Part shown: positions 7,226-40,736 of the stretch, one piece after another
How positions within the stretch are numbered: the stretch's first letter is position 1
How the letters are laid out: each line of letters begins with the position of its first letter
Origin: Propionibacteriales bacterium
Lineage (GTDB): Bacteria > Actinomycetota > Actinomycetes > Propionibacteriales > Nocardioidaceae
Direction: 5' to 3'
Length of the DNA stretch: 64,000 nt
NCBI GenBank assembly: GCA_026392465.1
Contig: JAPLCA010000008.1
Span: 124,001 to 188,000 of the forward strand
Position numbers and translations under genes: made by a program
Notes under the pieces: generated by a model
Seen by the model: the letters and a program-made list of their open reading frames with translations, nothing else
What the model was told of the DNA's origin: nothing
Database searches by the model: none

Positions 7226-7255
7226 GGCGGGATCCTTCCAGGAGGGGCGGACGGC

Positions 7256-12413: not shown

Positions 12414-13546
12414 TCATCGACCAGCTCGACGCACCGCTGGAGGGCTCCCTGCGTCCGACGCTGCCCGGCCGGGTGTACACCGACCCCGAGCAGTTCGCCG
12501 CCGAGCAGGCCCAGATCTTCGAGCAGACGTGGTTCTGCGCCGTGGCGAGCTCCGACGTGGAGCGCGCGGGCGACTGGCGCACCGTCGAGATCGGCCGCGA
12601 GCGGCTGATCGTCTCCCGCAACCGACGCGGCGAGGCCCGGGCCTTCTTCAACGTCTGCCGGCACCGCGGCATGCAGGTCTGCACCGAGGAGTCCGGGTCG
12701 AGCCGGTCCTTCCAGTGCGGCTACCACGCCTGGACCTACGACCTCGACGGCGCGCTGGTCGCCGCGCCCAACTTGACGTCGATGCCCGACGTCGACCGGG
12801 CCACCTACAGCCTGCGGCGCGCGCACGTGCGCGAGTGGCTCGGCTACGTGTGGATCTGTCTGGCCGACGAGCCGCCGTCGTTCGAGGAGACCGTGCACGG
12901 CGAGGTCGTCACCCGGCTCGGGGAGCTGCACCACCTCGACAACTACGGCGTCGAGGGCCTCCAGGTCGCGCACCGCATCCGCTACGACGTGGCCGCCAAC
13001 TGGAAGCTCGTCGTCGAGAACTTCCAGGAGTGCTACCACTGCGCCACGATCCACCCCGAGCTCACCGAGGTGCTGCCGGAGTTCGCGGACGGGTGGGCGT
13101 CGCAGAGCGGCGTCAACCACGGCGCCCTGTTCGCGCCGGAGGTCGAGGGGTTCACCATCGACGGGTCGGCCGGCGCGCCGGCGATCCCCGAGATCGCCCC
13201 GGACCAGGACCGCCGCTACTACGCCATCACGATCCGGCCGAACGTGTTCGTCAACCTCGTCCCGGACCACGTGATCGTGCACCGCATGTTCCCGGTGGCC
13301 GCCGACCGGACGATCATCGAGTGCGACTGGCTGTTCCTGCCGGAGGTGGTGGCCGCGGGCACCGACGTCAGCAAGCAGGTGGAGCTGTTCGACCGCGTCA
13401 ACCGCCAGGACTTCGACGCGTGCGAGAAGACGCAGCCCACGATGAGCTCGCGGCACTACGTCGACGGCGGCGTGCTGGTCCCCGCCGAGCACCACATCGG
13501 CGTGTTCCACGACTGGGTCGCGGACCTGACCGGCCTGCAGCGCTGA
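12410..13546 (+). CDS. Rieske non-haem iron oxygenase, probable glycine betaine monooxygenase
   Basis: 378 aa. The Rieske centre is CRHRGMQVC ... CGYHAWTYDLDG (about residues 83-112). The mononuclear iron site is in VENFQECYHCATIHPEL near residue 203-217. Length and the YHxxxxHPEL arrangement fit the betaine/choline/stachydrine group (GbcA, BmoA, Stc2) rather than aromatic dioxygenase alpha subunits, and no beta subunit is present. With dimethylglycine and sarcosine enzymes in the adjoining operon, demethylation of glycine betaine to dimethylglycine plus formaldehyde is the best reading. Proline betaine or carnitine remain possible. ATG 12410 is preceded by GGAGGA and overlaps the reductase stop. 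Confidence 0.85.
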   Translation: MIIDQLDAPLEGSLRPTLPGRVYTDPEQFAAEQAQIFEQTWFCAVASSDVERAGDWRTVEIGRERLIVSRNRRGEARAFFNVCRHRGMQVCTEESGSSRSFQCGYHAWTYDLDGALVAAPNLTSMPDVDRATYSLRRAHVREWLGYVWICLADEPPSFEETVHGEVVTRLGELHHLDNYGVEGLQVAHRIRYDVAANWKLVVENFQECYHCATIHPELTEVLPEFADGWASQSGVNHGALFAPEVEGFTIDGSAGAPAIPEIAPDQDRRYYAITIRPNVFVNLVPDHVIVHRMFPVAADRTIIECDWLFLPEVVAAGTDVSKQVELFDRVNRQDFDACEKTQPTMSSRHYVDGGVLVPAEHHIGVFHDWVADLTGLQR

Positions 13547-24464: not shown

Positions 24465-24848
24465 ATGACCGCCGACACGCAGACCGTCACGTCCGTCCCA
24501 CCCTTCCGGGTGACCACGGACGGCCACAGCGGGCTGCCGCCGATGAACATCGGCAGCACGCTCGGCTTCATCGGCGACGTGTACGAGAACCCCGACGACA
24601 GCGTCATGTGCTCCGGCTACTTCGAGCTGCAGCACACGGACCAGCCGCTGGAGTACGTCTACGACTACGACGAGATGAAGGTCGTGCTCGAGGGCGAGCT
24701 GCACCTCGTGAACCTCGACACCGGGCAGGAGCTCGTCGCGCGCCGCCATGACGCGATCTTCTTCCCCCGGGGCTCGCGCATCGGGTTCAGCACGCCCGAC
24801 CGCGCGCTCGCCTTCTACACCGGCCACCGCGACGCGAGCCTGCTGTGA
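24465..24848 (+). CDS. Cupin-domain protein (EutQ-like) of the dimethylamine operon
   Basis: 127 aa. A small beta-barrel with DYDEMKVVLEGELHLVNLDTGQEL and AIFFPRGSRIGFS, similar to EutQ-type cupins; few of the canonical metal-binding His residues are seen. ATG 24465 is preceded by GGAGGG. It is the first gene of an operon with dmmA, a reductase and the DUF3445 oxygenase; its TGA overlaps the dmmA GTG. A sensor, chaperone or product-handling role is possible, but none is shown by the sequence. Confidence 0.75.
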   Translation: MTADTQTVTSVPPFRVTTDGHSGLPPMNIGSTLGFIGDVYENPDDSVMCSGYFELQHTDQPLEYVYDYDEMKVVLEGELHLVNLDTGQELVARRHDAIFFPRGSRIGFSTPDRALAFYTGHRDASLL

Positions 24849-25414
24849 ACCCGGCCCTCGAGCTCACCAGCGTCCCGGCGTGGGCGGTCCGGCCGTCGAC
24901 GCCGCCGTGCGACCCGGCCGCCACCGCGTGCACGGCCGTGGCCGTCGGGGCCGAGGCGGTCGACGTCGCGACCACCTGGCTCGCCGGTGCCGTCGCGCCC
25001 GGGCGTCTGCACGCCCTCGCCAGCACCGACGAGGCCCTCGCCGTGGTCGACGCCGAGCTCGCCGAGGCCCGCGTCGGCTGGCGGCTCCTGGTCGCCGGAC
25101 CGCTCACGGCCGTGCTCCCCCTGCGCGCCCGCGCCCTCGCCGGGGGCCTGGTCGACGCAGAGCTGTCGGTCGCCACCACGACCACCGACGACCTGCTCGT
25201 CACGTGCGCCCACTGCGCCGCGGTGACCTCGGCCCCCACCCACGTCGGGGGCGTCGTCCCCTGCGTCGGCTGCGACCGACGGCTCCTCGTGCACCACCAC
25301 GTCTCGCGCCGCCAGGGGACGTTCCTCGGCTACCAGGTCGACGCCGAACAGTGGGGGACGGAGCAGTGGGGGACGGGGCAGTGGGAGACGGAGCGGTGGG
25401 AGGAGGGGGCGTGA
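24845..25414 (+). CDS. dmmA: Dimethylamine monooxygenase subunit DmmA-like
   Basis: 189 aa. The C-terminal half carries two cysteine pairs (CAHC, CVGC) followed by LLVHHHVSRRQGTFLGYQVDAE, the zinc-ribbon-like end of DmmA-family proteins. It is an accessory subunit of the haem-dependent dimethylamine monooxygenase. The last 20 residues are a repetitive QWGTE/QWGTG/QWETE/RWEEG tail encoded by a 15-bp minisatellite that runs into the ribosome site of the next gene. Start GTG 24845 overlaps the cupin stop, and its stop overlaps the reductase GTG. Confidence 0.75.
   Translation: MNPALELTSVPAWAVRPSTPPCDPAATACTAVAVGAEAVDVATTWLAGAVAPGRLHALASTDEALAVVDAELAEARVGWRLLVAGPLTAVLPLRARALAGGLVDAELSVATTTTDDLLVTCAHCAAVTSAPTHVGGVVPCVGCDRRLLVHHHVSRRQGTFLGYQVDAEQWGTEQWGTGQWETERWEEGA
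25349..25408 (+). repeat. 15-bp coding tandem repeat at the dmmA 3' end
   Basis: About four copies of CAGTGGGGGACGGAG (25349, 25364, 25379, then a degenerate copy from 25394) encode five-residue repeats. The degenerate last unit supplies GGAGGAGGGG, the Shine-Dalgarno for GTG 25411. Confidence 0.85.
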
Positions 25415-26364
25415 GCACGAGCCTCTCCCTCGTGGTGGCGGCCGTCGACGACACCGTGCCCGGCGTGCGGTCGGTGCGGCTCGTCCGCCCCGACGGCGGT
25501 ACGCTGCCCGGGTTCACACCGGGCAGCCACGTCCTGGTGACGTGCGGACCGCCCGGCACCTCCGCCGTCGCCAACGCCTACTCCCTCACCGGCGACTCCG
25601 TCGCCCCGCGCGCCTACACGATCTCGGTGCTGCGCCTCGACGCCGGCCGCGGCGGCTCGCGCTGGGTGCACGCCCTGGCCACCGGCGACCGGGTCGAGGT
25701 GACGTCGCCGCGCTCGGCGTTCCCGCCCGTGCTCGCCGCGCGCCGGCACCTGCTCGTCGCCGGCGGCATCGGGGTCACCCCGATCCTGTCGCACCTGCGC
25801 AGCGCCGTGCGGTGGGGACGCGACGTCGAGGTGCTGTACGCGCACCGACCCGGCGCAGCGGCCCACCTCGAGGACCTGCGCGACCTCGCCGGCGACGCCC
25901 TCACCTGCCTCACCGACCGGACGGCGCTGGGCGACCACCTCGAGCGTCGCCTCGCCGACCAGCCGGTCGGCACCCACCTCTACACGTGCGGCCCGGCCGG
26001 GTTCATGGACACCGTCACGCTCGCCGCCCGACGTCTCGGATGGCCCGACGAGCGCATCCACGTGGAGCACTTCGGCGTCGACGACCTCGACCCCGGCGAG
26101 TCGTTCGAGGCCGTACTGCGCGCCTCCGGGCGGACCGTCCCCGTGCCGTCGGGCACGAGCCTGCTCGACGCGCTCGAGGGAGCCGGGCTGTCCGTGCCGA
26201 ACCTCTGCCGCCAGGGCGTGTGCGGAGAGTGCCGGGTGCGCGTCGCCGCCGGTACCCCGCTGCACCGCGACCTCGTCCTCAGCGACGCCGAGAAGGCCGC
26301 CGCCGACACGCTCCTGTGCTGCGTGTCGCGGGCCGCCGACGACCGACTGGAGCTCGACCTGTGA
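25411..26364 (+). CDS. PDR-type oxidoreductase (FMN, NAD, [2Fe-2S]) of dimethylamine monooxygenase
   Basis: 317 aa phthalate-dioxygenase-reductase layout: an FMN/FAD-binding barrel, an NAD domain (LLVAGGIGVTPILSHLR, YTCGPAGFMD) and a C-terminal plant-type ferredoxin with NLCRQGVCGECRV and a distal LLCCVS cysteine. It should carry electrons from NAD(P)H to the haem oxygenase encoded next, corresponding to the reductase subunit often called DmmB. GTG 25411 overlaps the dmmA stop (GTGA); its stop overlaps the next GTG. Confidence 0.88.
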   Translation: MSTSLSLVVAAVDDTVPGVRSVRLVRPDGGTLPGFTPGSHVLVTCGPPGTSAVANAYSLTGDSVAPRAYTISVLRLDAGRGGSRWVHALATGDRVEVTSPRSAFPPVLAARRHLLVAGGIGVTPILSHLRSAVRWGRDVEVLYAHRPGAAAHLEDLRDLAGDALTCLTDRTALGDHLERRLADQPVGTHLYTCGPAGFMDTVTLAARRLGWPDERIHVEHFGVDDLDPGESFEAVLRASGRTVPVPSGTSLLDALEGAGLSVPNLCRQGVCGECRVRVAAGTPLHRDLVLSDAEKAAADTLLCCVSRAADDRLELDL

Positions 26365-27353
26365 CCACCCAGCCCAGCGTGGACCGCGCCCTCGTCACCG
26401 GCTTCCCCTTCCCGTTCCCCACCGACCGCTACCGCTACACCACGAACGTCGAGCCGGCCCCTCGCGTCGTCGGCACCCCCGCCGGGCAGTGGGGCGCGAG
26501 CGTCGTCGACGTCGACGGCGAGTACCACCGCGAGTTGGTCGAGCGGGCCGCCGTCCTCGAGCGCGACCCCAGCCGCTACGCGGTGCTCGACCACATGGCG
26601 CCCGCCTGCTGGGACACGATGCTCACGCTCATGCGCGAGCTGGCGGCCACCTACCCCGACGTCATGAGCCTCGACGGCGACGGACCGTCGTACGTCTGGA
26701 CCAACCGGCTCCTCGACGTCGAGCAGCCGTTCACCTACGCCCGGCCGTCGACGCTGCCCGACGAGCCGCTGCGCTACGTCGCCGGACAGGTGCAGGAGGA
26801 CCTCGTGCTGCTCGACCAGCGCGACGGCGACCTCTGGGGCGACGCAGGCCTGGTGACGTTCGCCGCCGACTGGTCGTTCGGCTTCGACGTCGGCATGTCG
26901 TTCCTGGAGATCCACGGCCCCGTGCCGCGCCTGCGCGAGACCGGCGTCATCACCCGCGCCCGCGAGTTCATCATGCGGCTCCAGCCGGGTGCGCCGTACC
27001 GGCGCACGAACTGGACGCTCACGATCGGACGTCAGCTCGACGTCTCCACCGAGCGCTACCCCGAGTGGGGCCCGGACCGGCCGCGCATCCTCACCGTCGA
27101 CGACACGACCTTCGGGCGCGAGGTGCACCTGCGCACGGAGGTGCAGCACCTCGTGCGCCTCGAGGAGTCCGGCGCGGTGCTGTTCCTCATCCGCACCTAC
27201 CTGCTGCCGTTCGAGGAGCTGGCACGCGTGGAGCCGTGGCGGGCCACCACGGCGGCCGTGCTGGCCGACCTGCCTGACGACATCGCCGACTACAAGGGCG
27301 TCGCCGGCTACCGCGACCGCGCCGTCACCTGGCTGCACGCGCGCACGCCCTGA
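26361..27353 (+). CDS. DUF3445 haem-dependent oxidative N-demethylase (dimethylamine monooxygenase catalytic subunit)
   Basis: 330 aa. The sequence fits the DUF3445/HODM alpha-like family: an N-terminal FPFPFPTDRYRYTTNV, AADWSFGFDVGMSFLEIHGPVPRL, and RLQPGAPYRRTNWTLTI with RTEVQHLVRLEESGAVLFLIRTYLLP. Known members bind haem and oxidise dimethylamine to methylamine and formaldehyde; subunit naming differs between organisms, so I give no symbol. GTG 26361 overlaps the reductase stop. The neighbouring amtB-glnK genes would handle ammonia and methylammonium. Confidence 0.82.
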   Translation: MTTQPSVDRALVTGFPFPFPTDRYRYTTNVEPAPRVVGTPAGQWGASVVDVDGEYHRELVERAAVLERDPSRYAVLDHMAPACWDTMLTLMRELAATYPDVMSLDGDGPSYVWTNRLLDVEQPFTYARPSTLPDEPLRYVAGQVQEDLVLLDQRDGDLWGDAGLVTFAADWSFGFDVGMSFLEIHGPVPRLRETGVITRAREFIMRLQPGAPYRRTNWTLTIGRQLDVSTERYPEWGPDRPRILTVDDTTFGREVHLRTEVQHLVRLEESGAVLFLIRTYLLPFEELARVEPWRATTAAVLADLPDDIADYKGVAGYRDRAVTWLHARTP

Positions 27354-31382: not shown

Positions 31383-32189
31383 ATGAGCACCCCCGACGTC
31401 GCCGTCATCGGCGGATCCGGCTTCTACACGTTCCTAGACGATCCCGAGCAGGTCGACGTGGACACCCCCTACGGACCGCCGTCGGCACCCGTGTCCGTCG
31501 GCCAGGTCGGGGACCGCACGGTCGCGTTCCTGCCGCGGCACGGCGCCGACCACCGCTACCCTGCGCACCGGGTGCCGTACCGCGCGAACCTGTGGGCGCT
31601 GCGCTCGCTCGGCGTCCGCCAGGTGCTCGCGCCGTGCGCCGTCGGCGGGCTGCGGCCCGAGCTGGGGCCCGGCAGCTTCGTCGTGCCCGACCAGCTGGTC
31701 GACCGCACCAGCGGCCGCCTGCAGACCTACTACGACTCCGGCGCGGTGCACGTCTCGTTCGCCGACCCCTACTGCGAGCGCCTGCGCGGCCACCTCCTCG
31801 ACGGCCTGGCCGACCACGCGCCCACCGACGGCGGTGCGATGGTCGTCATCGAGGGTCCGCGCTTCTCCACGCGCGCCGAGTCGCGCTGGTACGCCGACCA
31901 GGGCTGGGCCGTGGTCAACATGACCGGCCACCCGGAGGCGGTCCTGGCCCGCGAGCTGGCGCTCTGCTACGCCACCGTCGCGCTCGTCACCGACCACGAC
32001 GCAGGCGTCGACGACGGTGCTGGTGGTCACGGCGAGTCCGTCAGCATGGAGGCCGTCTTCCAGGTGTTCCGCGAGCACACCGACACGCTCAAGTCGACCC
32101 TCGCGACCGTCGTCGGCAGCCTCGGCGAGCGCGACTGCGCGTGCGGCTCCGCCGTCGACGGCATGACGCTGCCGTTCGAGCTGCCGTGA
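31383..32189 (+). CDS. mtnP: S-methyl-5'-thioadenosine phosphorylase
   Basis: 268 aa, normal length. AVIGGSGFY, LPRHGADHRYPAHRVPYRANLWAL, IEGPRFSTRAESRWY, NMTGHPEAVLARELALCYA and TDHDAG are all MTAP/PNP-II motifs; Asp in TDHDAG is the residue selecting 6-aminopurines. It cleaves methylthioadenosine (or 5'-substituted adenosines) to adenine and a ribose-1-phosphate. ATG 31383 lies close behind GAGGGG, 50 bp after arsC. Its stop overlaps the epimerase GTG. In arsenosugar pathways a related phosphorylase acts on arsenic-substituted adenosine, which makes this position notable. Confidence 0.9.
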   Translation: MSTPDVAVIGGSGFYTFLDDPEQVDVDTPYGPPSAPVSVGQVGDRTVAFLPRHGADHRYPAHRVPYRANLWALRSLGVRQVLAPCAVGGLRPELGPGSFVVPDQLVDRTSGRLQTYYDSGAVHVSFADPYCERLRGHLLDGLADHAPTDGGAMVVIEGPRFSTRAESRWYADQGWAVVNMTGHPEAVLARELALCYATVALVTDHDAGVDDGAGGHGESVSMEAVFQVFREHTDTLKSTLATVVGSLGERDCACGSAVDGMTLPFELP

Positions 32190-33241
32190 GGGTCCTGCTC
32201 ACCGGCGCCGCCGGGTTCATCGGCTCCCGCATCGACCGGCGGCTCGCCGAGCGTGGGCACGACGTGGTCCGCCTCGACGCCTACCTGCCGATGGCCCACG
32301 GGCCCGGCGCGCGCGACACCGCACCCGACGACGTGCACCTGCTCGACCTGCGCGATGCAGGCGAGGCGGAGCTCGACGCCGTCCTCGACGGGATCGACGT
32401 CGTGTGCCACCAGGCGGCGATGGTCGGCAACGGCGTCGACGCGCAGGACCTGCCCGACTACGCGGCGCACAACGACCTCGGCACCGCCCGGCTCCTCGCG
32501 GCCATGGCGCGCGCCGGGGTCGTCCGTCTGGTGCTCGCGTCGTCGATGGTCGTCTACGGCGACGGCCGCTACGACTGTCCCGAGCACGGCGACGTGCCGC
32601 CCGCGGTACGCCGCGAGGACGACCTGGCGGCCGGTCGCTTCGACCCGCGGTGCCCCGTCTGCGGCGGCGACGTCACGTGGCGCCGGGTCACCGAGGACGC
32701 GCCGATCCGTCCGCGCACGTCCTACGCGGCCTCGAAGATCGCGCAGGAGTACTTCGCCGACGCCTGGTGCACGCTGCAGTCGGGCCGCGCCGTGGCCCTG
32801 CGGTACCACAACGTCTACGGTCCAGGCATGCCCGCGGACACCCCGTACTCGGGCGTGGCGGCGATCTTCCGGTCGGCGCTGGAGCGCGGCGAGGCGCCGC
32901 GCGTGTTCGAGGACGGCCAGCAGGTGCGCGACTTCGTGCACGTCGACGACGTCGCGCTCGCGAACGCGCTCGCCGTCGAGACCGTGGCTGAGCACCCGGT
33001 GGGCGTCACGCCCTACAACGTCGCCTCGGGACGGCCGTTCACCATCGGCGACATGGCCCGCGTGCTCGCCGCGGCGGTCGACGGACCCGAGCCGGTGGTC
33101 ACCGGCGACGCCCGCGTGTTCGACGTCCGGCACGTCCTCGCCTCTCCCGACAAGGCGGCAGAGGGGCTCGGCTTCCGCGCCGAGATCGCGCCCGAGGACG
33201 GCATCGCGCGGCTGGCCACCGACCCGCTCCGACGTCGCTGA
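32186..33241 (+). CDS. NAD-dependent epimerase/dehydratase with zinc-ribbon-like insert
   Basis: 351 aa extended SDR. The N-terminal GAAGFIGSRIDRRLAERG binds NAD, SYAASK carries the catalytic Tyr/Lys, and RYHNVYGPGMP and VRDFVHVDDVA are nucleotide-sugar epimerase motifs. Between residues about 130 and 170 an insert has CPEHG and CPVCGG, a likely zinc ribbon, as in dTDP-rhamnose 4-epimerase-like proteins. It probably epimerises a nucleotide sugar. GTG 32186 overlaps the mtnP stop, an unusual pairing of a nucleoside phosphorylase with a sugar epimerase. Confidence 0.85.
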   Translation: MRVLLTGAAGFIGSRIDRRLAERGHDVVRLDAYLPMAHGPGARDTAPDDVHLLDLRDAGEAELDAVLDGIDVVCHQAAMVGNGVDAQDLPDYAAHNDLGTARLLAAMARAGVVRLVLASSMVVYGDGRYDCPEHGDVPPAVRREDDLAAGRFDPRCPVCGGDVTWRRVTEDAPIRPRTSYAASKIAQEYFADAWCTLQSGRAVALRYHNVYGPGMPADTPYSGVAAIFRSALERGEAPRVFEDGQQVRDFVHVDDVALANALAVETVAEHPVGVTPYNVASGRPFTIGDMARVLAAAVDGPEPVVTGDARVFDVRHVLASPDKAAEGLGFRAEIAPEDGIARLATDPLRRR

Positions 33242-33293
33242 CCGTGACGTCGTGGCCCAGGATCGGCCGGATCCAGGGCCACAACGTCACGGT
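33241..33293. terminator. Long near-perfect inverted repeat between convergent genes
   Basis: 18-bp outer arms (ACCGTGACGTCGTGGCCC against its complement, one mismatch) enclose a second inverted repeat around GATCGGCCGGATC. It starts at the last base of the epimerase stop and lies before the convergent membrane-protein stop. Confidence 0.75.
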
Positions 33294-33309
33294 CAGGGGA
33301 GGGTGGGCG

Positions 33310-34653
33310 TCACCAGCGGGTGATGAGCAGGGTCTGGGCGAGGAGCGCGACCACGACCTGCGACGCGAGCAGTGGACGCTGCCAGCGGTCGGGGAGCAGC
33401 GCCGGCACTGCCACCACCCAGATCGTGAACGGCAGCCAGATCCGCTCGACCTCCGCCTTGCTCATGCCCGACAGCGTCGCCAGCGCGATGGTGGTGAGGC
33501 CACCGGTCGCGAGCACCGCGAGGGGCACGCGGCGCCGGACGGCGTCGGCGGTCGCCGGGAACGCGGCCCACACCGCCAGGCCGGCCGTGCACGTCCACGC
33601 GGCGAGGTTCGCCCACACCCAGTAGCCGTAGGAGCGCTCCGACGCGATGCCGTCGTAGTAGCGCTCCCGCAGCACCGGGTACGCCTCCCACCAGTGGAAG
33701 CCGAATGCCGAGAAGACCGCCGTCACCACGAGGGCGCCGCCCAGTGCCCACGGCAGCGCCCACCAGCCGAGCCCCGGCGGCCTCCCGCGCTCGCGTGCAC
33801 CTCCGCGGCTCGAGGCCGCGAGCCAGAGCACCGTCAGGGCGAGGACGCCGAGCAGCACCAGGCCGTACGACAGGTAGACGCACCAGCCGAGCAGCAGCCC
33901 GGCGGCGACGCCCTGCGCCCAGCCGCGCGGTCCGCGCGACGTCGCCGCGCGTGCCAGCAGGTACAGGCCCCAGGCGGCCACGGCGGCGAAGTACCAGTCG
34001 GCGCTGACGCCCGCCCACACCACGAGCGGCGCGAGCGCGAGCCACGGCGCGGCCCGACGCGCCAGGTCGCGGCTGCCGAGCAGGTCGAGCGTCAGCAGCA
34101 CGGCGGCCACGGACGTCGCGCCCACCGTCACCACGACCATCGCGATCCAGAACGGGTCCTGGACGCCGAGCCGGTCGAGCAGCACGAACGAGAGCAGCGC
34201 GCCCGGTGGGTGCCCGGCCACGTGCGTGTGCCAGTTGTCGGGCGCCGACGACGGGATGCGCTCGACGAACTCCCGCAGCATCGCGGGGACGTCGCGCACG
34301 GTCTGCGCGTCGTGCGGGTACTCGCTGGTGCGGCCGTACACGCGCGCGAACCCGTAGCGGCCGTCGCTCAGCCCCAGTGCGCACGTCCAGAGCCATCCCG
34401 CGAAGGTCGTCAGCACCACCACCGCCCGCCAGGGCAGCTCGAGGCACAGCCGCGGCAACGCCGACCACAGCAGCACCCCGGCCGCCACCGCCACGAGCAC
34501 GAGCGGGTCGAAGCGCGGACCCCACCACGCGTGCAGCGGCGGGAAGTGCACGCGCACGTCCTCGTCGAGCAGCAGCGGCACGACCATGGCCGCGACGACG
34601 AGCACGAGTCCGACGAGCGCCGACACGACGGCCGGACGGGGACGGACCTGCAT
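33310..34653 (-). CDS. Polytopic membrane protein, possible GT-C-type glycosyltransferase
   Basis: 447 aa with about 11-12 TM helices. After TM3 there is a large loop with GYGFARVYGRTSEYPHD-like sequence and DNWHTHVAGHPPGALLSF, the kind of acidic/His loop seen in GT-C mannosyltransferase-like proteins of actinobacteria. No donor or acceptor can be assigned. ATG 34653 is sound. It is divergent from the GT2 operon with an 84-bp spacer, so both may contribute to one glycan. Confidence 0.65.
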   Translation of the reverse strand: MQVRPRPAVVSALVGLVLVVAAMVVPLLLDEDVRVHFPPLHAWWGPRFDPLVLVAVAAGVLLWSALPRLCLELPWRAVVVLTTFAGWLWTCALGLSDGRYGFARVYGRTSEYPHDAQTVRDVPAMLREFVERIPSSAPDNWHTHVAGHPPGALLSFVLLDRLGVQDPFWIAMVVVTVGATSVAAVLLTLDLLGSRDLARRAAPWLALAPLVVWAGVSADWYFAAVAAWGLYLLARAATSRGPRGWAQGVAAGLLLGWCVYLSYGLVLLGVLALTVLWLAASSRGGARERGRPPGLGWWALPWALGGALVVTAVFSAFGFHWWEAYPVLRERYYDGIASERSYGYWVWANLAAWTCTAGLAVWAAFPATADAVRRRVPLAVLATGGLTTIALATLSGMSKAEVERIWLPFTIWVVAVPALLPDRWQRPLLASQVVVALLAQTLLITRW

Positions 34654-34737
34654 GCCGCCACGCTAGCCCGACCCCGTCCGCCCCGCAGGGCCGCTGGTTG
34701 GCGTGCGGGGTCGCGTCATCGCCCGTAGTTTCGAGGC

Positions 34738-35406
34738 ATGGTCGATGCCGGTGTGACGTGCGACGTGGTGGTGCCGTGTCGCGACGAGGCGGCGGCCCTG
34801 CCCCTCGTCCTCGCCGACGTCCCCGACGGCCTGCGGGTCGTCGTGGTCGACAACGGCTCCACCGACGGCACCGCCGACGTCGCCCGCTCGCTGGGCGCCG
34901 TCGTGGTGCACGAGTCCCGTCCCGGCTACGGCGCCGCCGTGCACGCGGGCGTCGAGGCGGCCGAGGCCGAGTACGTGGCCGTGATCGACGGCGACGACTC
35001 GATGCGGCTCGCCGACCTCCTGCCGATGCTCGACGCCGTGCGCACCGAGGGCGTCACCATGGCCGTGGGTCGACGCCGGCCGGTCGCCCGCGGCGTCTGG
35101 CCCTGGCACGCACGCGCCGGCACGCTCGCGCTCGCCACCTGGATCCGCCGCTCGAGCGGGTTCGGCATCCACGACCTCGCGCCCATGCGGGTCTGCCGCC
35201 GCCAGGACCTGCTCGACCTCGACGTGCGTGACCGCCGCTTCGGGTACCCGCTCGAGCTCATGGTCAAGGCGTCCCGTGCGGGCTGGACGGTCCGCGAGCT
35301 CGACGTCGAGTACCGACCGCGCGCGGCCGGCACGCGCTCGAAGGTGTCGGGGTCGGTCAAGGGCACGGCCCGGGTCGTCCAGGACTTCGCGAAGGTGCTC
35401 CGATGA
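34738..35406 (+). CDS. Glycosyltransferase family 2
   Basis: 222 aa GT-A fold: CDVVVPCRDEAAALPLVL, VVDNGSTDGTADVAR and the DxD-type IDGDDSMR. Only a short C-terminal part follows, with no membrane anchor. Such enzymes transfer sugar from a nucleotide or dolichyl/polyprenyl donor. TAGTTT at 34726-34731 is a fair -10, 6 nt before the ATG, so the message is probably leaderless. It starts a five-gene operon in which each gene overlaps or nearly abuts the next. Confidence 0.9.
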   Translation: MVDAGVTCDVVVPCRDEAAALPLVLADVPDGLRVVVVDNGSTDGTADVARSLGAVVVHESRPGYGAAVHAGVEAAEAEYVAVIDGDDSMRLADLLPMLDAVRTEGVTMAVGRRRPVARGVWPWHARAGTLALATWIRRSSGFGIHDLAPMRVCRRQDLLDLDVRDRRFGYPLELMVKASRAGWTVRELDVEYRPRAAGTRSKVSGSVKGTARVVQDFAKVLR

Positions 35407-36098
35407 CGCCCGCGCCGCTCGAGCCGCCCTCGACGGGTCCCGTGCTCCTCGTGGTCGCCAAGGCGCCCGTGCCCGGGCTCGCCAAGACGCGGCTCGGCCG
35501 CGTGGTCGGGCCCGACGCCGCCGCCGACGTGGCCGCGGCCGCCCTGCTCGACACCCTCGACGCCGTGCAGGCCGCGCGCGCGGTGACGGGCTGGCCCGTC
35601 GTCGTCGCGATGACCGGCGACGTCGACGCCGCCGCCCGCGGCAGCGACGTCCGCGCCGCCCTCGAGCGCACCATCGTCGTACCGCAGCGCGGTGACGACT
35701 TCGGCGAGCGGCTCGCCCACGCCCACGCCGACGCAGGGGTCCACGGTCGCGGCACGGTGCAGATCGGCATGGACACCCCCCAGGTGGCACCCGACGACCT
35801 CCTGGCCGCCGGCGACGCCGTGGCCGAGGGGCGCCAGGTGCTCGGCCCCGCCGACGACGGTGGCTGGTGGCTGCTCGGCCTGCCCGACCCGCACCGCGCC
35901 GACGCCCTGCGCGACGTGCCGATGTCGCGCGACGACACCGGCGAGCTGACCCGTGCCGCCCTCGGCGACGTCGAGCTGCTGCGCGCGCTGTGCGACGTCG
36001 ACGAGTGGCCGGACGCGCAGGCCGTGGCGAGCAGCCTCCCGGGGTCGCGGTTCGCCGCGTCGGTGGACCGGTCCACGACGGCAGGAGCAGAGGCATGA
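35403..36098 (+). CDS. DUF2064/TIGR04282-type nucleotidyl- or glycosyl-transferase-like protein
   Basis: 231 aa. VLLVVAKAPVPGLAKTRLGRVVG is the nucleotide-sugar-pyrophosphorylase-like N-terminus of DUF2064; IGMDTPQVAPDDLL and LGPADDGGWWLLGL follow. The family is named from radical-SAM/arsenosugar clusters as transferase 1, but its reaction is not proven in general. ATG 35403 overlaps the GT2 stop, so the pair likely works as a unit. The arsenic resistance genes 4 kb upstream make the arsenosugar link worth testing. Confidence 0.85.
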   Translation: MTPAPLEPPSTGPVLLVVAKAPVPGLAKTRLGRVVGPDAAADVAAAALLDTLDAVQAARAVTGWPVVVAMTGDVDAAARGSDVRAALERTIVVPQRGDDFGERLAHAHADAGVHGRGTVQIGMDTPQVAPDDLLAAGDAVAEGRQVLGPADDGGWWLLGLPDPHRADALRDVPMSRDDTGELTRAALGDVELLRALCDVDEWPDAQAVASSLPGSRFAASVDRSTTAGAEA

Positions 36099-36730
36099 GC
36101 CTGGACGACGCCACGTTCGACGCGGTCTTCACGTCCGACGACTCGCGGCTCGTCGACGACGCCGGTGTCGAGGAGCACCTCGCGGTGCACCGCTGGGCGG
36201 CGGACGCGGACGACGCCGACCACGCACTGTTCGTCGACCCGTGCTCCGGCCCGACGCTCGACCTCGGCTGCGGGCCCGGGCGCCTGGTGCACGCCCTCCT
36301 GCTGCGCGGGGTCGACGCGCTGGGCGTCGACACGTCGCGCGCGGCCCTGGGGCTCGCGAAGGCTCGTGGCTCGGTCGTGCTGCGCCGCGACGTCTTCGAC
36401 CGGCTCCCGGGCGAGGGACGGTGGCAGCACGCGCTGCTGGCCGACGGCAACATCGGCATCGGCGGGCGTCCGGCGCGGCTGCTCCGGCGGGTGGGCGAGC
36501 TCGTCGCGCCCGGCGGCTCGGTGCTCGTCGAGGTGCGCGAGAGCGGGGGCATCCTGCAGGAGACCCGGCGCCTGCTCGTCGACGGCCGCCTCGGTGCGCC
36601 GTTCGCGTGGGCGGTCGTCGGGCTCGACGCCGTCAGCTACCTGGCCGACCGCGCCCACCTCGTCCACACCCGCACGCTGCAGGCGGACGGTCGCTGGGTG
36701 GCCGAGCTGCACCGACCGGCCAGGGGCTGA
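36095..36730 (+). CDS. Class I SAM-dependent methyltransferase
   Basis: 211 aa. Motif I LDLGCGPGRLVHALLLRG near residue 52, then GVDTSRAALGLAKARG and the post-motif LLADGNIGIGGRPARLLRRVGELVAPGGSVLVEV. The N-terminus DDATFDAVFTSDDSRL is not one I recognise. ATG 36095 overlaps the DUF2064 stop. A sugar or sugar-lipid may be methylated, given the neighbours; the sequence does not show the acceptor. Confidence 0.85.
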   Translation: MSLDDATFDAVFTSDDSRLVDDAGVEEHLAVHRWAADADDADHALFVDPCSGPTLDLGCGPGRLVHALLLRGVDALGVDTSRAALGLAKARGSVVLRRDVFDRLPGEGRWQHALLADGNIGIGGRPARLLRRVGELVAPGGSVLVEVRESGGILQETRRLLVDGRLGAPFAWAVVGLDAVSYLADRAHLVHTRTLQADGRWVAELHRPARG

Positions 36731-36735
36731 GGACC

Positions 36736-37896
36736 GTGCGTCTGCCCCGGGTCGAGGACTTCGAAGCCCGCGCGCGGGGACCGCGGCTCACGGCGCGGGT
36801 CGGCACCTGGCTCGGGGTGGCGTTCGGGGTCTGCTTCCTCACCGGGATGTGGAGCCACCTCCAGTACGACCCGCCGGCGTGGGCGCCGATCGGACCCCGG
36901 CCCACGTCGCTCTACCGGTGGACGCAGGGCCTGCACGTGGCCACGGGCATCGCCTGCGTGCCGCTGCTGCTGGTCAAGCTGTGGTCGGTGTTCCCGCGAC
37001 TGTTCGCGCGTCCCCCGGCCGGCCTCCGCCGCCTCGCCCTGCACGCGCTCGAGCGCTGGTCCATCGCCGTCCTCGTGGCCTCGGCGCTGTTCCAGCTGGT
37101 GACCGGGCTGCTCAACGTCGTGCAGTGGTACCCGTGGTCGTTCTCGTTCCGGCCGGCGCACGAGGCCGTGGCCTGGGTCGCGATCGGCAGCATCCTGGTG
37201 CACGTGGCGGTCAAGCTGCCGGTGGTCCGCCAGACCTTCGCCCCCGAGGACACCGAGGACGGCGATGGCGACGGCGACGGCACCGGCGCCGAGCGTGCCG
37301 GTGCTCCGGGGCGGCGCGCGGTGCTGGCGACCGCGCTCGGTGCCTCGGCCGTGGCGACCGTGCTCACCGTCGGGCAGAGCGTGCCGTGGCTGCGACGCGT
37401 GTCGGTGCTTGCCGTACGCGACGGGACGGGACCGCAGGGGCTCCCGATCAACCGCACCGCCCGCGCCGCTGGTGCCGTCGACGCCGCCACCGACGCCGAC
37501 TTCCGGCTCGAGGTCGTGCACGGCGACCGCCGCGTCACGCTGAGCCGGGCGGAGCTCGCGGCCCTCCCGCAGCGCACGCACCGGCTGCCCATCGCCTGCG
37601 TCGAGGGGTGGAGCCGCAGCGCGACGTGGACCGGCGTGGCCGTGCGCGACCTGCTCGAGCTGGTCGGGGCGCCCGCGGCGTCCACGGTGCGCGTCACGTC
37701 GATGCAGACCCGGGGCGCCTTCGCGCGCAGCGAGCTGCCCGCCGTGTTCGTCGAGGACCACCGCACGCTGCTCGCGCTCGAGCTCGAGGGCGAGCCGCTC
37801 GACCTCGACCACGGCTTCCCGTGCCGCATCATCGCGCCCAACCGGCCCGGCGTGCTGCAGACCAAGTGGGTGCGGACGCTGGAGGTCCGCGCATGA
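36736..37896 (+). CDS. Membrane-anchored molybdopterin (sulfite oxidase-fold) oxidoreductase
   Basis: 386 aa. The N-terminal half has about four TM helices resembling a cytochrome b561-type domain, with His in TRWTQGLHVATGIA and PAHEAVAWVAIGSILVHVAVKLP as possible haem ligands. After an acidic linker (EDGDGDGDGTG) and another TM segment comes a molybdopterin domain with IACVEGWSRSATWTGV (Cys ligand) and LDHGFPCRIIAPNRPGVLQTKWV. It may be a periplasmic-facing reductase/oxidase wired directly to the membrane. GTG 36736 lies 5 nt after the methyltransferase stop. The substrate is unknown. Confidence 0.82.
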   Translation: MRLPRVEDFEARARGPRLTARVGTWLGVAFGVCFLTGMWSHLQYDPPAWAPIGPRPTSLYRWTQGLHVATGIACVPLLLVKLWSVFPRLFARPPAGLRRLALHALERWSIAVLVASALFQLVTGLLNVVQWYPWSFSFRPAHEAVAWVAIGSILVHVAVKLPVVRQTFAPEDTEDGDGDGDGTGAERAGAPGRRAVLATALGASAVATVLTVGQSVPWLRRVSVLAVRDGTGPQGLPINRTARAAGAVDAATDADFRLEVVHGDRRVTLSRAELAALPQRTHRLPIACVEGWSRSATWTGVAVRDLLELVGAPAASTVRVTSMQTRGAFARSELPAVFVEDHRTLLALELEGEPLDLDHGFPCRIIAPNRPGVLQTKWVRTLEVRA

Positions 37897-38315
37897 GGAC
37901 GGCTCGTCTGCTCCTCGCGCTCCCCGGGGTGGCCGCCATCGTCTGGGGCGTCCTCCTGCTGCTCGACCGGCCCGACGGCCTGGTGTCCGTGCTCGTCTGG
38001 GCCGGGGGCGCGGTGCTCGTGCACGACCTCGTCGTGGCACCGCTCACCGTCGTCGTCGGCCTGGGGCTCGGTCGGCTCCTGCCACCGGCCACGCGCGCCC
38101 CGACCCTCCTGCTGCTCGCCGGCTGGGCCCTCGTGACGGTGGCGGTCTCCGCCGTGCTGTCGGGCCAGGGTGGCAAGCCCGACAACCCGACGCTGCTCAC
38201 CGGCCACTACGGACTCGCCTGGGGCGTCCTGTCGCTCCTCGTGGCCGTCGCCCTCGCCGTGCTCGTCGTCACCGGCGTCCGGCGGGAGCGTCGCCGTACG
38301 TCCGCGCCCTCCTGA
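37893..38315 (+). CDS. Four-TM hypothetical membrane protein
   Basis: 140 aa, nearly all hydrophobic: LLLALPGVAAIVWGVLLLL, LVWAGGAVLVHDLVVAPLTVVVGLGLG, LLLLAGWALVTVAVSAVLSG and GVLSLLVAVALAVLVVTGV, with a basic C-terminus. I do not recognise the family. ATG 37893 overlaps the molybdopterin oxidoreductase stop, so it may be a partner subunit. It is the last gene of the GT2-DUF2064-methyltransferase operon. Confidence 0.7.
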   Translation: MRTARLLLALPGVAAIVWGVLLLLDRPDGLVSVLVWAGGAVLVHDLVVAPLTVVVGLGLGRLLPPATRAPTLLLLAGWALVTVAVSAVLSGQGGKPDNPTLLTGHYGLAWGVLSLLVAVALAVLVVTGVRRERRRTSAPS

Positions 38316-38332: not shown

Positions 38333-38908
38333 GTGCTGCTGAGCGACCGCGACATCCTGGCCGAGATCGACGCCGGACGGGTGAGCCTGGACCCCTTCGA
38401 GCGCTCCATGATCCAGCCGTCGAGCATCGACGTGCGACTCGACAAGTTCTTCCGCGTCTTCGACAACCACAAGTACCCGCACATCGACCCGGCCGCCGAC
38501 CAGTCCGACCTCACGCGCCCCGTGGAGGTGGCCGGCGACGAGACCTTCGTGCTGCACCCCGGCGAGTTCGTCCTGGGCTCCACCTTCGAGCTCGTCACCC
38601 TGCCCGACGACGTGGCGGCGCGCCTGGAGGGCAAGTCCTCCCTCGGCCGCCTCGGGCTGCTGACGCACTCCACCGCGGGCTTCATCGACCCGGGCTTCTC
38701 CGGCCACGTGACCCTCGAGCTGGCCAACGTCGCGACCCTGCCGATCAAGCTCTACCCGGGCATGAAGATCGGCCAGCTCTGCTTCTTCCGGCTGACGTCC
38801 GCCGCGGAGCACCCGTACGGGTCCGCCGCGTACGGCTCCCGGTACCAGGGCCAGCGCGGCCCGACGGCGTCGCGGTCGCACGCCAACTTCCACCAGACGA
38901 GCATCTAG
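38333..38908 (+). CDS. dcd: dCTP deaminase (probably bifunctional dCTP deaminase/dUTPase)
   Basis: 191 aa, full length. Motifs [47 protein letters not shown] and [12 protein letters not shown] are those of Dcd; the mycobacterial homologue of the same length both deaminates dCTP and hydrolyses dUTP. It supplies dUMP for thymidylate synthesis. GTG 38333 is 6 nt after TAGGTT, a good -10, so the message is leaderless. Confidence 0.95.
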
Positions 38909-38927
38909 ACCCGAAGCACGAGCCAGC

Positions 38928-39836
38928 ATGTCGCTACCCCTGACCATCAGTCCCGAGGTCTCCGACGCCCTCGCCGCCGGCCGGCCGGTCGTGGCGCTGG
39001 AGTCGACGATCATCTCCCACGGCCTGCCGCGCCCGGACAACCTCCACGCCGCGCACCGCTTCGAGCAGCAGCTGCGCGACGCGGGTGTCGTGCCGGCGAC
39101 CATCGCCGTGCTCGACGGCCAGCTCAAGGCCGGTCTCACCGGCCCCGAGCTCGAGCGGATCGCGTCGGAGGACGTGCCCAAGCTGAGCATGCGCGACCTC
39201 CCGGTCGTGCTCGCCCGTGGTGGCAGCGGGGCGACGACGGTCGCGGCGACGTCGTTCGTCGCCGACCACGCCGGCGTGCGGGTCTTCGCCACCGGCGGGC
39301 TGGGCGGCGTGCACCGCGGGGCCGGCACGTCGTTCGACGAGTCCAACGACCTGAAGGTGCTCTCGGAGGTGCCGATCACCGTGGTGTCCGCGGGCGTCAA
39401 GTCGGTGCTGGACATCGGCGCGACCCTGGAGCGGCTCGAGACGCTCGGCGTGACCGTGCTCGGCTACGGCACCGACGAGTTCCCGAGCTTCTGGCTGCGC
39501 TCCTCGGGCGAGCCGCTGGACTGGGTGGTGCCCGACGGTCCGGCCGTCGCCGGCGTCATGGAGGCGCGCGAGCAGCTGGAGCTGTGCTCGGCGATCGTCG
39601 TGGCCAACCCGCTGCCGTTCGACCAGCAGCTCGACCCCGACCTGCACGACCGTGCTCTCACCGAGGCGCTGCGGCGGTGCGAGGAGAAGGGCATCGAGGG
39701 CAAGGAGGTGACGCCGTTCCTGCTCTCGACCATCGTCGAGCTCACGGAGGGCGACAGCCTCGCCGTCAACCTGCGGATCGTCGAGAACAACATCCGGGTG
39801 GCAGCCGAGATCGCCACCGCCTGGGCGGAGCTCTAG
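38928..39836 (+). CDS. psuG: Pseudouridine-5'-phosphate glycosidase
   Basis: 302 aa. ALESTIISHGLPRPDN, LARGGSGATTVAAT, VFATGGLGGVHRGA and VVANPLPFDQQLD match the PsuG/indigoidine synthase A-like family; the lysine in the KSVLDIGATLE segment and metal-binding Asp are in place. It cleaves pseudouridine-5'-phosphate to uracil and ribose-5-phosphate. The partner kinase gene starts 3 bp after the stop, giving a complete pseudouridine salvage pair downstream of dcd. Confidence 0.93.
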   Translation: MSLPLTISPEVSDALAAGRPVVALESTIISHGLPRPDNLHAAHRFEQQLRDAGVVPATIAVLDGQLKAGLTGPELERIASEDVPKLSMRDLPVVLARGGSGATTVAATSFVADHAGVRVFATGGLGGVHRGAGTSFDESNDLKVLSEVPITVVSAGVKSVLDIGATLERLETLGVTVLGYGTDEFPSFWLRSSGEPLDWVVPDGPAVAGVMEAREQLELCSAIVVANPLPFDQQLDPDLHDRALTEALRRCEEKGIEGKEVTPFLLSTIVELTEGDSLAVNLRIVENNIRVAAEIATAWAEL

Positions 39837-39839
39837 CCC

Positions 39840-40736
39840 GTGACGGTGCTCGTCGTCGGCGACGTGGTCGACGACATCAGCGTGCGACCGCTCACCGAGG
39901 TCACGCCCGCCAGCGACACGCCCGCCACCATCCGCATGGCCCCCGGGGGCTCCGCCGCCAACGTCGCGGCGTGGCTCGGCGAGCTCGGCGTGCCGACCCG
40001 CTTCGTTGGGCGGGTCAGCGCCGACGCCGTCGAGCGGCACGCGGCGGCCCTCGCCGCGCACGGCGTGGACGCGCGGCTCGTGGGCGACCCGGACCTGCCG
40101 ACCGCGACGATCCTGCTGCAGCTCGACGACGCCGGCGAGCGGACGATGTTCGTCGACCGTGGCGCGAACGGGCGGCTCGCGCCCGGCGACGTCGCGGACG
40201 ACGCGTGGGACGGCGTCACCTGGTTGCACCTGACGGGGTACTCCTTCTTCGACGAGGGCACCCGCTCGACGGCGCTCGGGCTCGTGGCGCAGGCGCGGGC
40301 GCGTGGCGCCGGCGTGAGCGTCGACCCCAGCACCGTCTCCTTCCTGCGGGCGTGCGGCGGGCCGACCTTCCTCGACTGGGTCGACGGGGCCGACCTCGCG
40401 TTCCCGAACCTCGACGAGGCGCGGGTGCTCGTCGACGCACGAGGACCGCAGATCGACCTCGACCACCTGGCCACCCGCTTCGGCGGCGTCGTGGTGACGC
40501 TCGGGTCCATGGGCGCGGCCTTCCTCGGCGACGTCGACGGTGTCGAGCACCGGGAGCAGGTCACGGCCCCACGGACCGCCGTCGTCGACACGACCGGCGC
40601 GGGCGACGCCTTCGCAGCCGGGTTCCTGGCGTGCTGGCTGCGCCCGGGTCCCCGTGACGTGCGCGGGGCGCTCGAGTCGGGCCGGGCCGTGGCCGAGCGG
40701 TGCATCGCCCTGCGGGGTGCGCGGCCGCCGGCGTAG
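39840..40736 (+). CDS. psuK: PfkB-family carbohydrate kinase, probable pseudouridine kinase
   Basis: 298 aa ribokinase fold: the N-terminal MAPGGSAANVAAWLGELG, a mid TIL-type region and the C-terminal DTTGAGDAFAAGFLACWL anion-hole motif with catalytic Asp. Position 3 bp after psuG indicates pseudouridine as substrate. GTG 39840. Without the neighbour it could only be called a PfkB kinase. Confidence 0.85.
   Translation: MTVLVVGDVVDDISVRPLTEVTPASDTPATIRMAPGGSAANVAAWLGELGVPTRFVGRVSADAVERHAAALAAHGVDARLVGDPDLPTATILLQLDDAGERTMFVDRGANGRLAPGDVADDAWDGVTWLHLTGYSFFDEGTRSTALGLVAQARARGAGVSVDPSTVSFLRACGGPTFLDWVDGADLAFPNLDEARVLVDARGPQIDLDHLATRFGGVVVTLGSMGAAFLGDVDGVEHREQVTAPRTAVVDTTGAGDAFAAGFLACWLRPGPRDVRGALESGRAVAERCIALRGARPPA

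What the first reader, a model, noticed from the sequence alone, without database searches (positions are those of the whole stretch)
31383..38315. Candidate undescribed pathway: mtnP-epimerase pair next to a GT2-DUF2064-methyltransferase-molybdopterin oxidoreductase operon
A methylthioadenosine phosphorylase overlaps a zinc-ribbon nucleotide-sugar epimerase. Divided from them only by a GT-C-like membrane protein is an operon of GT2, DUF2064, methyltransferase, a b561-like/molybdopterin oxidoreductase and a 4-TM protein. The start/stop overlaps are tight, which argues for one pathway. DUF2064 (TIGR04282) is associated with arsenosugar and radical-SAM clusters in other bacteria, the ars operon is adjacent (29.4-31.3 kb), and a phosphorylase acting on 5'-substituted adenosine would fit, but ArsM and ArsS are absent. 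Alternatively the set makes a modified glycan or lipid-linked sugar with a redox step outside the membrane. I know of no described pathway with this complement.
Basis: partly seen in the sequence, partly recalled or inferred. Interest (0 to 1): 0.75.

Follow-up and report, generated by a model that had tools for sequence, protein, structure and literature searches.

The report
Methylthio-sugar capping operon beyond mycobacteria
These eight genes look like a soil-bacterium version of the pathway that tubercle bacilli use to put an unusual sulfur sugar on their surface, with extra genes for a methylation and a redox step, so the pathway appears far more widespread than the one organism group in which it has been described.

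Summary
Window 31383-38315 encodes MTA phosphorylase, an SDR epimerase, a GT-C-type membrane protein, GT2, DUF2064, a methyltransferase, a b-heme/molybdopterin oxidoreductase and a 4-TM protein, mostly with 4-bp overlaps. The set is conserved as one cluster, often permuted, in the genus, three other families of its order and across Actinomycetia: of 28 class-level loci holding GT-C and GT2, all 28 hold DUF2064. In 39 near-complete genomes of the genus, DUF2064 and oxidoreductase co-occur perfectly (24/0/0/15); MTAP misses once.

The arsenosugar reading fails: no ArsM or ArsS above cut-off, TIGR04282/04283 below cut-off. The core matches the Mycobacterium locus whose M. tuberculosis genes MtxS (Rv0539) and MtxT (Rv0541c) build the methylthioxylose (MTX) cap of lipoarabinomannan. 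Relatives lack arabinan synthases, so the acceptor differs.

New: a methyltransferase and an MsrP-like oxidoreductase plus 4-TM protein (apparently Rv0218-Rv0219) track this locus even 0.4 Mb away. I propose a methylated methylthio-pentose cap with outside sulfoxide redox control. The sugar's identity is inferred; the genome lacks spermidine synthase.

The parts
31383..32189 (+). S-methyl-5'-thioadenosine phosphorylase (MTAP); predicted first step, 5'-(methylthio)adenosine to (methylthio)ribose-1-phosphate
   Evidence: NF005876 425 bits (cut-off 306), TIGR01694 290 (cut-off 275); co-occurs with the cluster in the genus
32186..33241 (+). extended SDR nucleotide-sugar epimerase with Cys-rich insert; predicted ribo to xylo (C3) epimerase
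   Evidence: Pfam Epimerase 151 bits; YxxxK and C131, C156, C159 invariant in 15 relatives; 58-61% identical to the Mycobacterium cluster protein
33310..34653 (-). GT-C type integral membrane glycosyltransferase, MtxT-like
   Evidence: no Pfam/NCBIfam family; AlphaFold model best matches arabinosyltransferase AftA and then mainly OST/PMT GT-C enzymes, low TM-score; 41-45% identical to the Mycobacterium cluster proteins
34738..35406 (+). GT2 polyprenyl-phosphate sugar synthase, MtxS-like
   Evidence: Pfam Glycos_transf_2; profile matches dolichol-phosphate mannose synthase 5mlz and ArnC-type enzymes; 55-57% identical to the Mycobacterium cluster GT2
35403..36098 (+). DUF2064, GT-A/CofC-like; predicted nucleotidyltransferase that activates the pentose-1-phosphate
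   Evidence: PF09837 95 bits; TIGR04282 111 bits, below cut-off 134; profile matches 3cgx, a putative nucleotide-diphospho-sugar transferase, E=5e-22; KTR, GMDTPQ and DGG motifs conserved
36095..36730 (+). class I SAM methyltransferase; predicted to methylate a cytoplasmic sugar intermediate
   Evidence: Pfam Methyltransf_25; fused to DUF2064 in L041, L043, L049, L054
36736..37896 (+). b-type cytochrome (4 TM) fused to a sulfite-oxidase-family molybdopterin domain, MsrQ-MsrP-like; predicted extracytoplasmic redox of the thioether/sulfoxide
   Evidence: Oxidored_molyb 86 bits; H67, H142, H156, RR193-194 in 18/18 and C288 in 17/18 relatives; CVEGWS against CVEAWS of MsrP 1xdq; fold matches to sulfite oxidases and MsrP
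37893..38315 (+). 4-TM partner protein, follows the oxidoreductase in nearly all relatives (Rv0219-like)
   Evidence: no family; 4 predicted TM segments; adjacent to the oxidoreductase

Best explanation
The eight genes are an mtx-type pathway: they make a 5-modified pentofuranose from a 5'-substituted adenosine, load it on polyprenyl phosphate and add it as a cap to a surface glycan. Proposed steps: (1) MTAP splits 5'-methylthioadenosine into 5-methylthioribose-1-phosphate; (2) DUF2064 activates it to a nucleotide sugar; (3) the SDR enzyme epimerises it (ribo to xylo); (4) the methyltransferase adds a methyl group to a cytoplasmic intermediate; (5) the GT2 (MtxS-like) transfers the sugar to polyprenyl phosphate; (6) after flipping, the GT-C enzyme (MtxT-like) transfers it to an extracytoplasmic glycan; (7) the b-heme/molybdopterin enzyme with its 4-TM partner, MsrQ-MsrP-like, sets the methylthio/sulfoxide state of the cap from the quinone pool. 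Shown here: homology, conserved linkage, co-occurrence, and absence of salvage (MtnA) and arabinan (Emb) genes. Taken from the literature on M. tuberculosis: MtxS makes the polyprenyl donor, MtxT transfers it, and MTA is the precursor. Inferred: steps 2, 3, 4 and 7, and that the sugar in this organism carries sulfur. The acceptor is unknown and is not lipoarabinomannan.
For: Synteny: MTAP-SDR-GTC-GT2-DUF2064-MT-oxidoreductase-4TM, also permuted, in about 28 genomes of the order and in Mycobacterium and other actinomycete families. Mycobacterium loci such as L105 carry MTAP-SDR-x-x-GT2-DUF2064-GTC between menA/fabH and menE/pitA/menB, the order I recall for Rv0533c-Rv0548c; MtxS=Rv0539 and MtxT=Rv0541c by PMC8780516; MTA as precursor by PMC11127046. 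Identities to the slow-grower mycobacterial proteins: MTAP 58-62%, SDR 58-61%, GT2 55-57%, DUF2064 52-53%, GTC 43-44%. Co-occurrence: MTAP/DUF2064 24/0/1/14 and DUF2064/oxidoreductase 24/0/0/15 in the genus; GTC/oxidoreductase 107/13/1/28 in Mycobacterium, Fisher P about 3e-19. MtnA absent from the own genome and from every cluster-bearing genome of the genus, so MTR-1-P has no salvage route. Oxidoreductase resembles MsrP, whose group is thought to act as reductases, MsrP itself on methionine sulfoxide (PMC7759655); both MTX and its sulfoxide MSX occur on M. tuberculosis LAM (PMC8531672).
Against: The own genome lacks spermidine synthase (PF01564), the usual source of MTA, so the substrate could be 5'-deoxyadenosine and the sugar a 5-deoxy-pentose without sulfur. 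No product is known from any of these organisms outside M. tuberculosis. [quoted passage not shown] M. tuberculosis H37Rv itself was not retrieved; the Rv equivalence rests on remembered gene order plus named relatives. Fisher P values ignore shared ancestry. The oxidoreductase scores far below NCBI's MsrP cut-off (26 against 207 bits).
Confidence: 0.74

Rival explanations
1. Same pathway logic, but the sugar comes from 5'-deoxyadenosine (radical-SAM by-product): a 5-deoxy-pentofuranose cap. The methyltransferase and oxidoreductase then act on something else.
For: No spermidine synthase in the genome; MTA and 5'-deoxyadenosine are handled by related enzymes (PMC6302742); no MtnA.
Against: The homologous Mycobacterium locus makes a methylthio sugar; an MsrP-like enzyme with an invariant three-His b-heme domain fits a sulfur substrate; other MTA-forming reactions were not searched for.
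Confidence: 0.15
2. Organoarsenic (arsenosugar) pathway: the phosphorylase acts on 5'-deoxy-5'-dimethylarsinoyl-adenosine, and DUF2064 and GT2 make an arsenosugar.
For: TIGR04282/TIGR04283 carry 'arsenosugar biosynthesis' names and hit the DUF2064 and GT2 weakly; ars genes lie upstream.
Against: ArsM and ArsS absent from the genome; both family scores below cut-off, as for the Mycobacterium DUF2064 (114 bits); no ars genes beside most relatives' clusters.
Confidence: 0.02
3. MTAP and the epimerase are separate housekeeping genes that happen to lie beside a glycan operon.
For: Some relatives carry MTAP elsewhere (G014, G035); the Streptomyces-like loci L112-L115 have no MTAP within 10 kb.
Against: Presence of MTAP tracks presence of DUF2064 in the genus (24/0/1/14); SDR lies in 25/27 order-level and 24/28 class-level clusters; MTAP and SDR move with the cluster in permuted arrangements.
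Confidence: 0.06
4. The oxidoreductase and 4-TM pair is a general envelope methionine-sulfoxide or quinone-linked redox enzyme, not specific to the sugar.
For: Fold and motif shared with MsrP, which repairs proteins; L042, L044, L045 and L048 carry the pair away from the other genes.
Against: Presence tracks GT-C in Mycobacterium (107/13/1/28) even when 0.4 Mb apart, and tracks DUF2064 in the window genus without exception among near-complete genomes.
Confidence: 0.2

Closest known systems
Methylthioxylose (MTX) capping pathway of M. tuberculosis lipoarabinomannan (MtxS Rv0539, MtxT Rv0541c)
   Same: MTAP, SDR epimerase, GT2, DUF2064 and GT-C gene set in the same neighbourhood in Mycobacterium; polyprenyl-phosphate donor and GT-C transfer reported
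   Different: No arabinan/LAM genes here; additional methyltransferase, molybdo-b-heme oxidoreductase and 4-TM protein in the cluster, and a two-component system in many relatives
MsrPQ periplasmic methionine sulfoxide reductase
   Same: Molybdopterin sulfite-oxidase fold, CVExWS motif, b-heme membrane electron donor
   Different: Heme domain and Mo domain are one polypeptide; twin arginines sit between them; far below NCBI's MsrP cut-off; linked to a sugar pathway
Arsenosugar clusters with TIGR04282/TIGR04283
   Same: Phosphorylase + DUF2064 + GT2 logic acting on a 5'-modified adenosine (the phosphorylase part from memory)
   Different: No ArsM or ArsS; family scores below cut-off
PRPP-based three-component pentofuranose systems (PMC11127046)
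   Same: Lipid-linked pentofuranose and GT-C transfer outside the membrane
   Different: Donor made by GT2 from an activated pentose rather than by a UbiA-type PRPP transferase; MTAP in the cluster

Membership tests
MTX-type capping pathway | MTA phosphorylase in or tracking the cluster | tested here: met
MTX-type capping pathway | GT2 polyprenyl-phosphate sugar synthase homologous to that of the Mycobacterium locus | tested here: met
   55-57% identity to the cluster GT2 of named mycobacteria, conserved synteny
MTX-type capping pathway | GT-C transferase homologous to that of the Mycobacterium locus | tested here: met
   profile of the window family finds 120 of 149 Mycobacterium genomes, full-length hits mostly below 1e-125; low-confidence fold match to GT-C enzymes
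MTX-type capping pathway | SDR epimerase and DUF2064 in the same cluster | tested here: met
MTX-type capping pathway | MTA available as precursor | tested here: inconclusive
   no spermidine synthase in the genome; other MTA sources not searched
MTX-type capping pathway | acceptor is mannose-capped lipoarabinomannan | tested here: not met
   PF04602 absent from G000 and all relatives searched, control C. glutamicum positive
MTX-type capping pathway | product is 5-deoxy-5-methylthio-xylofuranose | not testable with these tools
   needs NMR or LC-MS of the glycan
Arsenosugar biosynthesis | ArsM arsenite methyltransferase | tested here: not met
   best 57.7 bits against cut-off 263
Arsenosugar biosynthesis | ArsS radical SAM protein (TIGR04167) | tested here: not met
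   24.3 bits against cut-off 300
Arsenosugar biosynthesis | TIGR04282 and TIGR04283 above curated cut-off | tested here: not met
   111 against 134 and 38 against 182
MsrP (YedY) sulfoxide reductases | sulfite-oxidase fold with CVExWS Mo-ligand motif | tested here: met
MsrP (YedY) sulfoxide reductases | NCBI MsrP equivalog cut-off (NF003767) | tested here: not met
   25.9 against 207 bits
MsrP (YedY) sulfoxide reductases | separate MsrQ heme partner | tested here: not met
   4-TM His-containing domain is fused at the N-terminus
Universal methionine salvage | MtnA present downstream of MTAP | tested here: not met
   no MtnA in the own genome; none above cut-off in the genus

The most novel reading that the evidence does not exclude
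Actinobacteria widely decorate surface glycans with a methylated methylthio-pentose whose sulfur is switched between thioether and sulfoxide outside the cell by a dedicated molybdenum enzyme of the type of M. tuberculosis Rv0218/Rv0219, which would be the first redox enzyme known to me for a glycan sulfur and would tie an orphan gene associated with meningeal tuberculosis to the MTX/MSX cap of lipoarabinomannan.
Probability: 0.38. Interest if true: 0.85.

Novelty: new variant of a known kind. Interest (0 to 1): 0.72.

Why it matters
A 2024 PNAS paper (PMC11127046) says it is unclear whether MTX addition exists outside lipoarabinomannan assembly; these genomes say the gene set does, in many actinomycete families, some without arabinan genes. 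That makes the question testable in harmless strains. It names candidates for steps that I found unassigned: DUF2064 as activating enzyme, the SDR as epimerase, and the Mo/b-heme protein as the enzyme behind MTX and MSX. The MTX epitope is used as a tuberculosis-specific diagnostic target, so wide distribution of the genes bears on specificity. Rv0218, linked to meningeal tuberculosis in a genome study (PMC5800017), would gain a concrete biochemical hypothesis.

Tried and rejected
Arsenosugar pathway: rejected on ArsM, ArsS and family cut-offs. Housekeeping MTAP in methionine salvage: rejected for this genus because MtnA is missing and MTAP tracks the cluster. PpgS assignment of the GT2: 61.5 bits against cut-off 370. 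The named-genome scan returned 80 mycobacterial loci but not M. tuberculosis itself, and I recognised no H37Rv genome among 388 held Mycobacterium genomes, so Rv numbers rest on recalled gene order and papers. The primary MTX biosynthesis paper (Angala 2017, PMC5357196) is not held; later papers that cite it were used. The GT-C model has modest confidence (pLDDT 67) and low TM-scores. Weak GT-C matches in some families (L218-L221, L223, L224) lie in other neighbourhoods and were not counted as cluster members. I did not build trees, so co-occurrence P values are not corrected for ancestry.
Full report
OBSERVATION. The MTAP is above two curated equivalog cut-offs. The GT-C-like protein matches no Pfam or NCBIfam family.

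CONSERVATION. I fetched about 20-kb neighbourhoods around homologues of the oxidoreductase and clustered all called genes. In the window's genus the order MTAP-SDR-(two-component system)-<GT-C-GT2-DUF2064-methyltransferase-oxidoreductase-4TM is the rule. In another set it is permuted to oxidoreductase-4TM-MTAP-SDR-<GT-C-GT2-DUF2064-methyltransferase. In three other families of the order the same genes recur in other orders. In L041, L043, L049 and L054 DUF2064 and methyltransferase are one protein. In L049, which lacks the window-type GT-C, a GT87 protein follows the DUF2064-methyltransferase fusion.

CO-OCCURRENCE. Among 39 genomes of the genus at least 90% complete, DUF2064 and the oxidoreductase are both present in 24 and both absent in 15; MTAP differs once. 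MTAP is therefore not a housekeeping gene in this genus. MtnA is absent from the own genome; the only two matches in the genus (G009, G037) are weak, below cut-off, and in genomes without MTAP. So the ribose-1-phosphate that MTAP makes has no salvage route.

LINK TO A KNOWN PATHWAY. The GT-C profile found homologues in 116 of 297 Actinomycetia genomes, with E-values near 1e-130 in one genus of mostly 5-6.5 Mb genomes. One of its loci shows fabH-menA-MTAP-SDR-<x-x-GT2-DUF2064-<GT-C-<menE...pitA...menB (L105; the flanking gene names are my reading of the protein sequences), the order I recall for Rv0533c-Rv0548c of M. tuberculosis. A named scan returned M. persicum, M. szulgai, M. gordonae and others with this order, and M. 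neoaurum, M. litorale and others with the full eight-gene cluster. Papers state that MtxT (Rv0541c) transfers methylthioxylose to the mannose caps of lipoarabinomannan, that MtxS (Rv0539) forms the decaprenyl donor (PMC8780516), and that the precursor is methylthioadenosine (PMC11127046). Identity of the window proteins to slow-grower mycobacterial ones is 43-62%.

WHAT IS DIFFERENT. No arabinan synthase (PF04602) is found in the genome or in any relative searched, while the control C. glutamicum is positive. The acceptor is therefore unlikely to be lipoarabinomannan. The methyltransferase, oxidoreductase and 4-TM protein are extra. In Mycobacterium the oxidoreductase is inside the cluster in some species and about 0.4 Mb away in others, yet its presence follows the GT-C: 107 both, 13 GT-C only (two of them remnants in 3.3-Mb genomes), 1 oxidoreductase only, 28 neither. 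The distant copy, with the 4-TM gene behind it, lies between hydrolase/MaoC-like/acyl-CoA dehydrogenase genes and an esterase/wax-synthase pair (L205, L206), which I recognise from memory as Rv0216-Rv0221; Rv0218 is described as a multi-TM protein with a molybdopterin domain (PMC5800017).

HOW THE REDOX STEP MAY WORK. The protein has four TM helices with three invariant histidines (H67, H142, H156), an invariant twin arginine (R193-R194) and a sulfite-oxidase domain with C288 in the motif CVEGWS. E. coli MsrP (1xdq) has CVEAWS, and Foldseek lists both sulfite oxidases and MsrP. A review holds that the MsrP group likely acts as reductases fed by a membrane cytochrome (PMC7759655). Both methylthioxylose and its sulfoxide occur on M. 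tuberculosis lipoarabinomannan (PMC8531672). A fused MsrQ-MsrP-like enzyme reducing (or oxidising) the cap sulfur is the simplest reading; direction and substrate are inferred.

DUF2064. The profile matches 3cgx, annotated as a nucleotide-diphospho-sugar transferase, and CofC weakly. Acting as nucleotidyltransferase on the pentose-1-phosphate explains why phosphorylase and epimerase are its partners. This is inference.

WEAK POINTS. The genome has no spermidine synthase, so MTA must come from another reaction, or the substrate is 5'-deoxyadenosine. An MTX-dependent antibody is reported not to bind fast growers or other bacteria (PMC6258851), although many fast growers carry the genes; an extra methyl group or another acceptor could explain that. 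The methyltransferase is missing next to the mtx genes in the slow-grower loci, so it is probably not needed for MTX itself. H37Rv was not retrieved, so Rv numbers are by recalled order.

VERDICT. One conserved pathway; core of a known kind (MTX-type capping); a new, wider variant with a methyltransferase and a redox module; product and acceptor unknown.

Noticed in passing
window 24465-27353, with 6068-9754 and 12410-13546: Methylamine/betaine-type catabolic genes: DmmA-family subunit, ferredoxin reductase, HODM alpha subunit-like protein, DAO-GcvT fusion enzyme, Rieske oxygenase weakly like GbcA, followed by what look like an ammonium transporter and a PII protein.
   Followed up: partly
L205 8483-10951, L206 8423-10260: In slow-growing mycobacteria the oxidoreductase and 4-TM pair (apparently Rv0218-Rv0219) lies about 0.4 Mb from the mtx genes; L205 keeps the methyltransferase directly upstream of it.
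   Followed up: yes
G423 and G454 (3.3 Mb Mycobacterium genomes): GT-C survives only as fragments with stop codons and no full-length oxidoreductase is found, as expected for reduced genomes of the M. leprae type.
   Followed up: no
L037, L043, L052-L054, L056-L058, L061, L062, L065, L066, L071-L074, and about half of the clusters among L105-L124 and L207-L224: A two-component system (response regulator, usually with histidine kinase) is embedded in many of the clusters but not in the window; it may regulate the capping.
   Followed up: partly
L105 13551-15221 and 11442-13262: Slow-grower mtx loci hold a DUF7937 membrane protein and a 606-aa protein without family between epimerase and GT2, positions recalled as Rv0537c and Rv0538.
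   Followed up: no
L049 14713-16101: A GT87 protein follows the DUF2064-methyltransferase fusion in a locus without the window-type GT-C, suggesting a different acceptor.
   Followed up: partly
window 38333-40736: dCTP deaminase gene starts 17 bp after the 4-TM gene, followed by PsuG-like and PfkB-like genes; this order is kept in many relatives.
   Followed up: no
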